The notes below the pieces were generated by a model. The model worked only from the letters and a program-made list of their open reading frames with translations, searched no databases and was not told the DNA's origin. Of a stretch of 45,178 bases of DNA, positions 1 to 3,967 are shown in pieces (position 1 is the stretch's first letter; the number at the start of each line of letters is the position of its first letter). This DNA is from Deltaproteobacteria bacterium (GTDB taxonomy: Bacteria; Myxococcota_C; UBA6777): the NCBI GenBank assembly GCA_002731275.1, contig PCBK01000045.1, forward strand, positions 102,760 through 147,937, in the 5' to 3' direction. A program made the position numbers and the translations under genes.

Positions 1-1227
1 TTTTTGTTTCCCCTGTTTGATGTTAAAACTTCCACTCTTCCGAACAGCTACACGCCCTTCATAGACGCCCTTCTTCTTCCCTTTTGGAACGACCGCTCGA
101 ATGATATCTCCTGTTTGAAAACCTCGTACTCTCTTCTCACTCTTTGCTTTTGTTCGGGGAAAACCATAGCGATCGACTCGACACATTTGCCTGCTCCCTC
201 TCCCCATTGCTTTGAGCTCCAGTACTTCGTGTTGTTTCTCAACGAATACGTTCTCTCCACTTTCTCCAACACACATTGCATCAAGCCAGTGCTCTTTTGC
301 GTATCCTTGCTTGCTACGGTTGTACTTTGTTCTTCCACCTGTCCCTGTCTCCAAAGAGAGACCTGTGGCCTTCAGAACGCTATAGATCGCGTTCCTGGTT
401 GCATTCATCGCTGCTGCAGCTCTCAGAGGCTTGCAGGATTTTTCTCGAAGACCTGAGAAGCCAAACTCTTCTGCTGTTTTCGTGTTCTTCTTCTGATTGC
501 ACTTCTCGCAAGACAATGTCAGATTTCCAATACGATTGCTTCCACCTCTTGATTTGGGTGTCATGTGCTCAATCTGTAATGGAACATCCTTTTTACTACA
601 GTAAGCACACTTGCGACCCCATTTCTCTAGCAGATATTCTCGGATTTCGTAACCAAAGAGAGTACCCTGTTGGTATTCGACGCCACTGATTTCTGGGTTG
701 ACCAACTTTTGTGCATCAAAGCGGACTCTCTCCATCGAGAGCGATGACACCGGAATGCGAGAACGAAGTTTCTTTGTCCAGGATGCGATGTTGTCTACAC
801 GACTCTGAAGTGATGGCGGCAGCCATCCTTTTGGTTTCGTACGGTTTTTGAAGCGTGGTTTACGATAACGTGTCTTTCGATGTCTTCGAGACCTTCTGAT
901 AGCTCTGCGTTTTTCAAGCCCTTCTTTGATCTGCCATCCCCGGTGTTCGAGTTCAGCAGCGAACACGCAGCGCTTTCCTCGCTTACAGTCAACAACGACT
1001 GCAATGCCTGTCGTTTTTGCTCCAGGATCGAACTTGAGCGCTGTAGGTTGAGTGTCACCACCTTCACGCTCTTTGATAATGATCGTAAAAGGATACCGAC
1101 GATAGACAGCAGCACGCCCTTTTCGCATCAGTTGCCGTGCTCTTGCTGGATGGCAAGGCATCAGCGGTTGTTTGTTCTTGTCAATGACGAGAACTCTGTT
1201 TTTGGTTTGGTTGGTTTCGTTTTTCAA
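1..1227 (-). CDS. iscB: IscB RNA-guided nuclease (RuvC/HNH), C-terminus cut by window edge
   Basis: IscB is the RNA-guided DNA nuclease ancestral to Cas9. The frame is open for 409 codons to base 1. A TTG start at 1227 is chosen because GAGGT lies nine bases upstream and the family N-terminus begins here (RVLVIDKNKQPLMPCHPARA, residues 11-30). In order are the PLMP segment with the RR-x-RR element, RuvC-I FDPGAKTTGIA (D67), an arginine-rich bridge helix at about 105-130, RuvC-II SMERV (E166), an HNH domain with paired CxxC knuckles and H221 in LQIEHMTPKSRGGSN, and RuvC-III KEHWLDAMCVG (H313, D316). All catalytic positions that I can place are kept, so the enzyme is probably active. IscB proteins of this kind end some 20-30 residues past this point, so little is missing. 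It is not TnpB, because the HNH insert is present. Confidence 0.93.
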   Translation of the reverse strand, partial: MKNETNQTKNRVLVIDKNKQPLMPCHPARARQLMRKGRAAVYRRYPFTIIIKEREGGDTQPTALKFDPGAKTTGIAVVVDCKRGKRCVFAAELEHRGWQIKEGLEKRRAIRRSRRHRKTRYRKPRFKNRTKPKGWLPPSLQSRVDNIASWTKKLRSRIPVSSLSMERVRFDAQKLVNPEISGVEYQQGTLFGYEIREYLLEKWGRKCAYCSKKDVPLQIEHMTPKSRGGSNRIGNLTLSCEKCNQKKNTKTAEEFGFSGLREKSCKPLRAAAAMNATRNAIYSVLKATGLSLETGTGGRTKYNRSKQGYAKEHWLDAMCVGESGENVFVEKQHEVLELKAMGRGSRQMCRVDRYGFPRTKAKSEKRVRGFQTGDIIRAVVPKGKKKGVYEGRVAVRKSGSFNIKQGKQK

Positions 1228-1500
1228 AATCGAGTTACCTCGCGTTCTCAGAGTCGCCCTTACGGGGTTCTCTGGTGATGGTCTCCTCGCCAATGTTATG
1301 GAGCGGTTTCTTGTGAGGAACACTGCCTTAGACCTTCAGACTGTTTAATCACTGACCGCAGAGCCTGAGACTGGAGAAGCATCTCAGGGTGCCTATACAT
1401 TCGCTCCTAACGTAGTCCTCCGAAAAGGACTCAGGCTGGTCAACATAGAGACTCTTTCAAGCCTCTCCCTTTAGGGGGAGGTCGTTGACAGAGAATGCAT
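1228..1500 (-). ncRNA. candidate omega RNA (guide scaffold) of IscB
   Basis: This stretch directly upstream of iscB has no supported gene and folds strongly. Reading the minus strand, there is a CCTC(C)CCCT/AGGGAGAGG hairpin at 1462-1481 with one mismatch, a perfect six-base-pair AGTCCT/AGGACT hairpin at 1414-1431, and a perfect seven-base-pair CCTGAGA/TCTCAGG hairpin at 1364-1388. Position and fold match what is known of omega RNAs, which carry the guide at the 5' end, taken from DNA flanking the element. On that basis the guide would lie near 1495-1520. The exact RNA ends are not visible from sequence. Confidence 0.65.
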
Positions 1501-1599
1501 TCCCGAGCTTGGTGTGTTGATCGTCTTATCTTTGGTAGGAGCGTATCGAGTGGTGTACTTGATTGTCAAGGTGATTCAGTGAATTACGCGCAGGGGAGG

Positions 1600-2601
1600 T
1601 TACGTGGCGTTGGTTGAGGAGAGACGTTCTTTTTCGAGGAGGGCGTGGACGAGGTACTCTTCGGCGGTTCGTTGGGGGCCGGGAGCGTTTGTGTCGCGTC
1701 TGTATCTGGCTTTCATGCGGCGGCGCTTATAAGAGCGATAGACGACATGTGGGTCCTCTCTGTGGTCTGTGCCAGCGCTACCGAGTGGGCGGTTGAGCAT
1801 ACGTCTGACTTCTTGCTCTGTGATGATGGAGAGCCCTTGTTGTTCCATCACGGAGCGCAGTTGGGTAAGCTCTTCGAAGGAGAGTCCAAACAAAAACTCT
1901 TGAAACGCAAACGCTTCTTCGTCATCTATTTGTTGTTCGATGAAGTGATCGAGGACTTGTGGAGGACACTGTGCTTCGATCAATTGCATCAGCTCAGAGG
2001 TGCCGAGGAGCGTGCCGTATTGAACTTGTACATTCATCCGTGCGTCCCAGAGAGAGCGTATGAGGGCGAAGAACTCACCGATACTCTCCTGGCTCGTGCT
2101 GGTATCCCACAGAGACACGAGGTGCGCGGCGGAGATGCGTTTGAGGGCTCTGGGCGCGCCTTTGTTGAGCACGACATCAAGCAGTAGTTGATAGAGCAGG
2201 TAGGTGTGGATGGTGTTGCCGAGTGCGTCGAAGACGCGCTTCTTGAGACGCGGTGGGCAGGCTGGTGAGTGGATGCGGATAAGTGTAAAGTAGATCCCTT
2301 TGAGATGCTGGATCTTGGTGGTCATGTAGCCTTCGGAGAGGATCGCTTTGCTCGGTAGCTTCAGCTTGAGCTCAAGAGGTTCCACACTGCAGAGTAAATC
2401 GAGCAACGTGTCGGTGTTGCGGTAGTGTCCACCAAGAGCTTGTTCTTCGCGCAGAGATGGGTAATCCTGAAGGAGTTGCATCAGGCGGATCAGGCGTTGT
2501 TGATTGGCTTCGAGGAGTGTGTATGCGTCGGCATCTTGGGCTTTGATCGCGTACATCGCCTCGTCGATCAGATCCTTTTTTTGCGCAAAGGGAAAAGACA
2601 T
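1600..2601 (-). CDS. hypothetical protein (333 aa)
   Basis: I do not recognise this protein. It is soluble, mostly helical by composition, with no signal peptide or membrane segment, and leucine/glutamine-rich helices near the start (residues about 5-60). The last 60 residues are very basic (RSYKRRRMKARYRRD), which could suit nucleic acid or ribosome contact, but this is only a guess. The frame stays open upstream to 2817, but that would run into the 5' region of the divergent RluA gene. The ATG at 2601 is therefore preferred, with 2637 as an alternative. It ends about 90 bases from the presumed IscB element end, so it may be the chromosomal gene next to the insertion. Confidence 0.7.
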   Translation of the reverse strand: MSFPFAQKKDLIDEAMYAIKAQDADAYTLLEANQQRLIRLMQLLQDYPSLREEQALGGHYRNTDTLLDLLCSVEPLELKLKLPSKAILSEGYMTTKIQHLKGIYFTLIRIHSPACPPRLKKRVFDALGNTIHTYLLYQLLLDVVLNKGAPRALKRISAAHLVSLWDTSTSQESIGEFFALIRSLWDARMNVQVQYGTLLGTSELMQLIEAQCPPQVLDHFIEQQIDDEEAFAFQEFLFGLSFEELTQLRSVMEQQGLSIITEQEVRRMLNRPLGSAGTDHREDPHVVYRSYKRRRMKARYRRDTNAPGPQRTAEEYLVHALLEKERLSSTNAT

Positions 2602-2773
2602 ATTTGCTTTTTGGTGTCCTCTGGTCCTATACAGCATGATGTGCTGTTGATTGATTCGATTATCGTCCTTTATCCGGGCGTTTTTGTGGTGGGATGACAC
2701 CACCACCTTTCCAATTTGTACTTGGTTGTATCCTTTCTCTTGTGTCGATGCAACCCGGAAATGAGAGTGATTT

Positions 2774-3967
2774 ATGCAAAAGAAGAATGCTGAGGAGCAA
2801 GCGAGCACCTCTTCCACACAACAGATCCATGAGCGAACTGAAGTGGATAAAGATAACTGGAGTTGCCTTCTGGCCGAAGAAGACCAGGAGCAGACCTACG
2901 CCGCGCTTGTGCGAAAATATGCGCCTGAACCCGTCAGTTGGAACCAAGCGCGCAAGTTGATCCACACTGGAAAAGTCTTTTTGGATGGCGGACGATTAAG
3001 TAACCCCGCCAATCGTTACAACGAAGGGAAACGTCTCGAAGTACGTATGAGCGAGCCTCGTCGTGCCTTGAGTGGTGAGCTCGAAGCCAGTCGTATCCTT
3101 TACATCGACAAGGACGTTGTTCTCGTCAACAAGCCCGCAGGGATGCTCACTGTCTCCTACGCGGAGATCGAAGATCTTGACACACTTGAGATCCTCTTAC
3201 GTGGGACGATTCAGCGAATCCGCAAAGGGCGTTTCAAAGATCCCCTCCACCTCGTACATCGTCTCGATAAGCTGTCGAGTGGCGTGTTGATCTTTGCCCG
3301 CACCAAAGAGGCATTCAAACACCTCAAGGAGCAATTTGCGGATCACTCCATCGGTCGTGAATACAGAGCTGTGGTCGTGGGTCACCCTGAGAATGGGACG
3401 GTTCGCTCTTGGCTTGTCGAGGATAGAGGGGATGGTTACAAGGGCTCTGTGCCCAAAAAGGATGCGAAGAAAAAGTACGCCAAAGAAGCCATCACACACA
3501 TCGAAGTGCTCGAACAATTTACACACGCGAGTCTACTGTCCTGTCGCCTTGAGACAGGGCGGACACACCAGATTCGTATTCATCTGAGTGAGATGGGACA
3601 TCCGTTGATCGGGGATCAGGTCTATTTGAAAGCCTGCGCTCGTCGTGGTCGCATTTACGAGGAGCTTCCTGACTTTGATCGGGTCGCATTACACGCAAGG
3701 TCTCTCACCTTTATCCACCCGACGACTGGGAAAGAGATGTCTTTCAATGCACCCATCCCCCGCGATATCAAGCAGCTCCTCAAAGATCTCCGCGAGGAGA
3801 CCAAAGAGCACGGTGTCGAAATCGCCGATGAGACTGCCCTGGAAGAAGACGGTTTGCCGCCAGTTTCCATGTCAATCTCCTTTGAAAAGAAGAAGAAAAA
3901 GATCAAAAAACCACCCTCGATCAAAAACAAATCCACTAGAAGACCCAAGAAGAGACGGAGTTCGTAG
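2774..3967 (+). CDS. RluA-family RNA pseudouridine synthase
   Basis: The enzyme isomerises uridine to pseudouridine in rRNA or tRNA. An S4-like RNA-binding segment lies at about residues 50-100 (WNQARKLIHTGKVFLDG). The RluA catalytic domain follows at about 115-340, with VNKPAGML and the signature LVHRLDKLSSGVLIFA, whose Asp is the catalytic residue of the family. RTHQIRIHLSEMGHPLIGD is the conserved C-terminal motif. The length of 397 aa exceeds the usual 300-330 because of an acidic or Ser-rich N-terminal 45 residues and a Lys/Arg-rich tail (KKKKKIKKPPSIKNK) that may help bind rRNA. RluD-like function is likely, but the target uridine cannot be read from the sequence. It is divergent from the hypothetical gene at 1600-2601. 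Confidence 0.93.
   Translation: MQKKNAEEQASTSSTQQIHERTEVDKDNWSCLLAEEDQEQTYAALVRKYAPEPVSWNQARKLIHTGKVFLDGGRLSNPANRYNEGKRLEVRMSEPRRALSGELEASRILYIDKDVVLVNKPAGMLTVSYAEIEDLDTLEILLRGTIQRIRKGRFKDPLHLVHRLDKLSSGVLIFARTKEAFKHLKEQFADHSIGREYRAVVVGHPENGTVRSWLVEDRGDGYKGSVPKKDAKKKYAKEAITHIEVLEQFTHASLLSCRLETGRTHQIRIHLSEMGHPLIGDQVYLKACARRGRIYEELPDFDRVALHARSLTFIHPTTGKEMSFNAPIPRDIKQLLKDLREETKEHGVEIADETALEEDGLPPVSMSISFEKKKKKIKKPPSIKNKSTRRPKKRRSS

What the first reader, a model, noticed from the sequence alone, without database searches (positions are those of the whole stretch)
1..1510. Apparently intact IscB nuclease with its omega RNA
All catalytic motifs of IscB (RuvC-I D67, RuvC-II E166, HNH H221, RuvC-III H313/D316) are visible, and a strongly folded leader precedes the gene. 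IscB is known as an RNA-guided nuclease and ancestor of Cas9, so the novelty lies in this particular ortholog and its guide, not in the family. The nuclease looks active, and no TnpA gene is seen on the leader side.
Basis: partly seen in the sequence, partly recalled or inferred. Interest (0 to 1): 0.72.

Follow-up and report, generated by a model that had tools for sequence, protein, structure and literature searches.

The report
IscB element parked before start codons
The window starts inside a real RNA-guided IscB mobile element, and its copies and distant relatives are repeatedly inserted exactly in front of a host gene's start codon, often bringing their own ribosome-binding site, which suggests a way to hitch onto host genes without destroying them.

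Summary
Window 1-1489 (- strand) holds an IscB gene with every catalytic motif (NCBIfam guided_IscB 436 bits) and, ahead of it, a HEARO/omega RNA (Rfam RF02033, 141.9 bits, 1275-1489). The missing end lies just left of the window: no frameshift, but the assembly has Ns there. The element is 1,630 nt, has no TnpA, and has many relatives in the genome.

The unexpected part is where it sits. All 16 element 3' ends found in this genome abut ATGA, and in 14 that ATG starts a long ORF (P = 2e-10 on the loosest background). The sister genus shows 13 of 19; relatives in other phyla show 18 of 32 (hand-scored). An uninterrupted parA/parB in two relatives of one such copy shows a clean insertion before ATGA with no duplication or loss. 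Many ends carry a Shine-Dalgarno sequence shortly before the ATG, though the sister genus lacks one.

Best explanation: an OMEGA element whose motif doubles as a start codon. Its guide lies upstream of the omega RNA, so it likely uses the host promoter, then hands translation to the host gene. Promoter use and cleavage are inferred, not shown. The family is known; I found no report of start-codon placement in the papers I could search.

The parts
1..1227 (-). IscB coding sequence, TTG start at 1227-1225; the last ~30 codons and the stop lie left of the window (stop at C50:102664-102666)
1275..1489 (-). omega RNA scaffold (Rfam HEARO), 5' end at 1489; 1489 is also the element's 5' boundary
1490..1510 (-). 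Host DNA just 5' of the omega RNA, the presumed guide (AAGCTCGGGAATGCATTCTCT reading toward the element); the last bases before the target ATGA in the inferred empty site
   Evidence: role as guide from established IscB biology
1..1489 (-). Window part of the 1,630-nt element C50:102619-104248; its 3' end is ...GAAAGGTTAAATTTCG directly followed by ATGA (left of the window)
1600..2817 (-). Host ORF upstream of and co-directional with the element, ending 110 nt before the omega RNA; the host gene on the other side (lipoprotein-like, 794 aa, L009:3235-5619 -) begins at the ATGA left of the window

Best explanation
This is one copy of a TnpA-less IscB-omegaRNA (HEARO/OMEGA) mobile element. It inserts precisely 5' of the tetranucleotide ATGA (GTGA in some relatives), which presumably also serves as the nuclease's target-adjacent motif and is usually the start codon of a host gene. 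Working model: (1) a Y1 transposase acting in trans moves it, with no target duplication; (2) because the guide is the host DNA immediately upstream of the omega RNA, transcription must begin in host DNA, so landing between a host promoter and its gene's start codon supplies that promoter; (3) the 3' end then hands translation to the host gene, through a Shine-Dalgarno sequence shortly before the ATG or by letting the IscB stop codon overlap the ATGA, so the insertion is tolerated; (4) the IscB-omegaRNA complex cuts the re-formed empty site (5' flank + ATGA), and repair from a filled copy retains the element. Shown: boundaries, an empty site (in a relative), ATGA at the junction, start-codon placement. 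Inferred: promoter capture, translational hand-off, trans transposition, cleavage and motif use.
For: Identity. Boundaries: fourteen 5' ends with unrelated flanks begin at the same base, and all 3' ends abut ATGA. Start codons, own genome: 14 of 16 ends precede an ORF of at least 179 aa; background for ATGA is 14.7% on a loose ORF test (P = 2e-10) or 2.4% on a strict one (P = 3e-21), and 15.6% counting only start-like and intergenic sites (P = 5e-10). Pfam domains begin near the N-terminus in several; an orthologous SctT in a relative starts at the same ATGACAGA without an element. Sister genus: 13 of 19, including metK, transaldolase and acyl carrier protein, which match their models from the N-terminus (P = 6e-5 loose). 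Other phyla: 18 of 32, hand-scored (P = 4e-10 loose). Empty site: Trichormus parA|1,603-nt element|ATGA parB against uninterrupted Aulosira (flanks 59/60 and 57/60 identical) and Tolypothrix (55/60 and 56/60), HEARO starting at the junction base. SD: GAAAGG is the third most enriched hexamer before start codons in this genome, 3.3% against 0.26%; several cyanobacterial ends carry GGAGG. IscB stop overlaps the start in C119 and in Acidobacteria. Published motifs NTGA and NTG for IsrB relatives (PMC9581776).
Against: The sister genus lacks any Shine-Dalgarno at its ends yet still shows start-codon placement, so the built-in ribosome site is not the general cause. About a third of all scored ends are not at a recognisable gene start. 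A 66-nt miniature at C125 is not at a gene start, and short forms at C81 and C66 are, although they carry no guide RNA to express. No sigma-70-type promoter was found in 1200-1900 by consensus scan, though this organism's promoters are unknown. SD enrichment in the displaced 5' flanks is weak (P = 0.01). No expression or cleavage data exist.
Confidence: 0.7

Rival explanations
1. Pure survivorship: the element inserts at any ATGA, most insertions in genes are lost, and start-codon insertions merely survive; promoter capture plays no part.
For: Only ATGA is strictly required at the junction. 81% of ATGA sites are intragenic and would mostly be harmful. In other phyla some copies sit at ATGA or GTGA with no gene, or inside a gene (L097). 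Short forms without a guide RNA are also found at gene starts.
Against: Non-start intergenic ATGA sites outnumber start-like ones 442 to 82, yet 14 of 16 copies are at starts (P = 5e-10). Survival alone would need intergenic sites to be nearly as harmful as intragenic ones.
Confidence: 0.35
2. Domesticated expression modules: the 3' end is useful to the host as a translation-initiation segment, and copies are kept by positive selection.
For: A 26-nt remnant with an intact GAAAGG...ATGA persists at a gene start (C142), and about a dozen further ACGAAAGGTT-N6-9-GATGA leaders precede genes without an element, against 0 for the reversed-pattern control.
Against: The leaders could be native host leaders that the element mimics; the sister genus has no SD at its ends; contigs breaking at near-identical copies suggest recent spread rather than old domestication.
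Confidence: 0.2
3. An ordinary IscB element with no placement bias; the start-codon pattern is an artefact of scoring any ORF as a gene.
For: ORF length alone passes 15-20% of random ATGA sites.
Against: The loosest background still gives P of 2e-10, 6e-5 and 4e-10 in three sets; N-terminal matches to family models; independently annotated parB starts and an empty site at parB.
Confidence: 0.03

Closest known systems
HEARO RNA + IscB (OMEGA system; ISC transposons of the IS200/IS605 superfamily)
   Same: Same RNA family (RF02033), same protein family (NF040563), RNA 5' of the ORF, guide taken from the 5' flank, motif on the 3' side, no target duplication. From memory, the 2009 HEARO description already reported integration next to ATGA or GTGA (paper not held).
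   Different: Recognition here that these ATGA/GTGA sites are mostly gene start codons, and that many element ends carry a ribosome-binding site or overlap the IscB stop with the start. Not found in searchable papers.
IsrB nickases such as DtIsrB (PMC9581776)
   Same: Published motifs NTGA or NTG fit the ATGA seen here.
   Different: IsrB lacks the HNH domain (own knowledge), which is present here.
OgeuIscB and other IscBs with solved structures
   Same: Domain order and catalytic motifs align.
   Different: The OgeuIscB structure used a GAAG motif (PMC9640706); here every junction is ATGA.
TnpB / IS605 elements and IStrons
   Same: RNA-guided nuclease carried by a transposon; IStrons also lessen the damage of insertion (own knowledge).
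   Different: TnpB guides lie 3' of the RNA, so an internal promoter can suffice; IStrons splice, whereas this element appears to pass on translation (own knowledge and inference).
Cas9 / Cas9d
   Same: RuvC and HNH domains share ancestry.
   Different: The Cas9d model matched only at 35 bits against a cut-off of 375.

Membership tests
IscB / OMEGA (HEARO) element | IscB protein with RuvC-I/II/III and HNH catalytic residues | tested here: met
IscB / OMEGA (HEARO) element | HEARO-type omega RNA directly upstream of iscB, same strand | tested here: met
   141.9 bits, full model, 1275-1489 (-)
IscB / OMEGA (HEARO) element | Mobile: several copies with constant ends and differing flanks | tested here: met
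   Fourteen 5' ends and sixteen 3' ends
IscB / OMEGA (HEARO) element | Conserved motif at the 3' junction of the inserted element (candidate target-adjacent motif) | tested here: met
   ATGA at every 3' end in this genome and in the sister genus. That the nuclease reads it was not tested
IscB / OMEGA (HEARO) element | RNA-guided cleavage of target plus motif | not testable with these tools
   Needs purified complex
IS200/IS605 superfamily mobility | Subterminal hairpins and insertion without target duplication | tested here: met
   CCTCCCCCTAAAGGGAGAGG near the 5' end, CCCCCCTCTGAAGAAGGGGG near the 3' end; clean empty site for a relative's copy
IS200/IS605 superfamily mobility | Own Y1 transposase TnpA in the element | tested here: not met
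   None in the element; four Y1 genes elsewhere in the genome could act in trans
Cas9 (type II CRISPR) | Cas9-family protein above curated cut-off | tested here: not met
   Cas9d 35.4 bits against 375; Csn1 18 against 100
Cas9 (type II CRISPR) | Adjacent CRISPR array | not tested
   No repeat search was run

The most novel reading that the evidence does not exclude
IscB elements across several phyla use start codons as insertion sites and nuclease motifs: the NTG(A) motif is the initiation codon itself, the upstream position of the guide makes host-promoter capture necessary, and the element end carries a translation-initiation signal that keeps the host gene, even an essential one, expressed.
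Probability: 0.55. Interest if true: 0.78.

Novelty: new member of a known kind. Interest (0 to 1): 0.6.

Why it matters
IscB is the ancestor of Cas9 and a genome-editing tool, but how these elements live in their hosts is little studied. If their motif is a start codon, this would help explain why relatives prefer NTG(A) motifs, why the guide can sit outside the element, and how they can occupy the front of genes such as metK. It also offers a simple rule for finding true element ends, guides and target motifs from genomes: look for the 3' end abutting ATGA or GTGA at a gene start. All of it is directly testable with RNA-seq and a reporter.

Tried and rejected
The first script to locate 3' ends in relatives used too strict a hairpin rule and missed most; the next ones failed to find IscB or read minus-strand loci in the wrong orientation, and the minus-strand ones were redone. 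The built-in Shine-Dalgarno as the general cause of start-codon placement was rejected because the sister genus shows placement without it. SctT in relatives was tried as an empty site: the start is conserved, but the upstream gene differs, so it supports the start codon and not an empty site. A consensus promoter scan around 1200-1900 found nothing. The papers by Weinberg 2009, Kapitonov 2015 and Altae-Tran 2021 are not held, so prior mention of start codons cannot be excluded. A Pfam call with wrong coordinates failed.

Full report
WHAT IS THERE. The window's first 1,489 bases, read on the minus strand, are the greater part of one mobile element. An open reading frame covers 1-1323 and runs off the left edge. 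It matches RRXRR and HNH domains and the curated RNA-guided IscB family at 436 bits against a cut-off of 175; solved IscB chains align along it. Upstream on the same strand, 1275-1489 matches all 211 positions of Rfam HEARO at 141.9 bits. The strongly folded leader is therefore an omega RNA, and position 1489 is its first base.

THE MISSING END. The window is C50:102760-147937 of a 10.75-Mb, 200-contig assembly. Left of it the frame stays open to a stop codon, with several ambiguous bases. The C46 copy, 98% identical over the shared 845 nt, reads ...GVSSPL* in the same place. So no frameshift is visible, but the last codons of this copy are not fully determined. The element spans C50:102619-104248, 1,630 nt, and has no transposase gene. 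The genome has four Y1 transposase genes elsewhere; the one read in full (C11) lies beside a long divergent ORF that looks tnpB-like by eye (not searched).

MANY COPIES, FIXED ENDS. Searches with the element found five complete or nearly complete iscB genes and many fragments ending at contig edges, the usual sign of an unresolved repeat. Fourteen 5' ends with unrelated flanks all start at the same base, GTCAA. Sixteen 3' ends were collected, and every one is directly followed by ATGA. The search pattern that recovered most of them did not include ATGA. Two miniature forms of about 66 nt join the 5' tail to the 3' hairpin (C125, C81), and shorter remnants exist at C66 and C142.

WHERE THE COPIES SIT. 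In 14 of the 16 cases the ATG of that ATGA opens a reading frame of at least 179 codons. Many look like true N-termini: lipoprotein signal peptides by eye, or Pfam domains that begin near the N-terminus (cation efflux, ABC ATPase, SctT/FliR export protein, response regulator, haem-binding domain). In 343 kb of the same genome 14.7% of ATGA sites would pass the same length test and 2.4% a stricter one, giving P = 2e-10 and 3e-21. Counting only start-like and intergenic sites the expectation is 15.6%, P = 5e-10 (genes there were called crudely by ORF length). Orthologues of the SctT protein in three relatives align from residue 1; in G003 the start is also ATGACAGA. In the two genomes of the sister genus, 20 ends (19 distinct) are all followed by ATGA, and 13 are at gene starts, including methionine adenosyltransferase, transaldolase and acyl carrier protein, whose first residues match the family models. 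By the 175-codon test this is 12 of 19, P = 6e-5 against a loose local background of 20% and 4e-13 against a strict one.

OTHER PHYLA. A scan of genomes and a plasmid search brought relatives from cyanobacteria, Acidobacteria, Nitrospiraceae, Deinococcus and Proteobacteria. I hand-scored those with a recognisable 3' end: 11 of 18 in genomes and 7 of 14 on annotated plasmids sit exactly at a gene start, among them an ABC transporter, histidinol dehydrogenase, DAHP synthase and two ParB genes in different phyla. The combined 18 of 32 has P = 4e-10 against a loose local background. Hand scoring is a weakness here; the own-genome and sister-genus counts are the more objective ones.

EMPTY SITE. 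On a Trichormus plasmid the element lies between parA and parB. Two related plasmids, of Aulosira and Tolypothrix, have the same genes uninterrupted with a 4-base ATGA overlap. The parA match ends at base 2289, HEARO begins at 2290, and parB resumes at ATGA 3893; the 60-base flanks are 59/60 and 57/60 identical to Aulosira and 55/60 and 56/60 to Tolypothrix. Insertion is thus precise, immediately 5' of ATGA, with no duplication and no loss, and the empty allele is exactly the guide-encoding flank followed by ATGA. No empty site was found for the window's own copy.

HOW TRANSLATION MAY PASS ON. In this genome most element ends read ...ACGAAAGGTT-N8-ATGA. GAAAGG is complementary to the usual 16S tail and is the third most enriched hexamer before start codons here, 3.3% against 0.26% of background sites. 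One copy has TGGAGG instead (C119). Several cyanobacterial ends have GGAGG. In C119 and in Acidobacteria the IscB stop codon is the TGA of ATGA or GTGA, a classical coupled overlap. But the sister genus has no such sequence, so this is a refinement in some lineages and not the cause of the placement.

MECHANISM. What is shown: element ends, ATGA, start-codon placement, and a clean empty site in a relative. What follows from known IscB biology: the guide is the host sequence just 5' of the omega RNA and the motif lies 3' of the target. What I infer: because the guide is outside the element, its promoter must be too, so sitting between a host promoter and its start codon supplies transcription; the host gene keeps being translated; and the nuclease recuts the empty site. 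Published motifs of IsrB relatives, NTGA and NTG (PMC9581776), fit start codons. Survivorship after random ATGA insertion remains a serious rival, and the short forms at gene starts, which have no guide RNA, speak for it or for a target preference rather than for promoter need, unless they arose by deletion in place.

NOVELTY. The object is a new member of a known family. From memory, integration at ATGA or GTGA was reported when HEARO was described in 2009; that paper and two others are not held, and open-access searches found no mention of start codons or built-in ribosome sites. I therefore mark the start-codon reading as new to the best of my knowledge, not as proven new.

Noticed in passing
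L214-L237 (own genome; C3, C16, C17, C36, C44, C66, C73, C83, C103, C108, C143): About a dozen host genes have the leader ACGAAAGGTT-N6-9-GATGA, like the element's 3' end but without an element, against zero for the reversed-pattern control. They may be fossils of lost elements kept as ribosome sites, or native leaders that the element mimics; C73 shows a visible hairpin remnant.
   Followed up: partly
L052:980-1045 (C125) and L053:736-802 (C81), approximate: Miniature, protein-less derivatives of about 66 nt that join the 5' tail of the element directly to its 3' hairpin.
   Followed up: partly
L240 (Deinococcus sp. KNUC1210 plasmid) and L248 (Trichormus variabilis plasmid): In two phyla an IscB element sits between parA and parB, exactly at the parB start codon. 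In Trichormus the parA C-terminus is altered because its stop codon was part of the split overlap.
   Followed up: yes
L009:5650-5765 (C50 just left of the window): Scattered Ns at the element's 3' end probably explain why the window begins where it does; they look like unresolved differences between copies.
   Followed up: no
L056 (C11:415-3780): A Y1 transposase gene divergent from a long ORF that looks tnpB-like: an IS605-type element that could supply transposase in trans.
   Followed up: no
L254:3820-3860 (Chroococcidiopsis plasmid): The target appears to be GTGA, and the element end supplies an extra in-frame ATG, so the annotated Uma2 gene starts inside the element.
   Followed up: no
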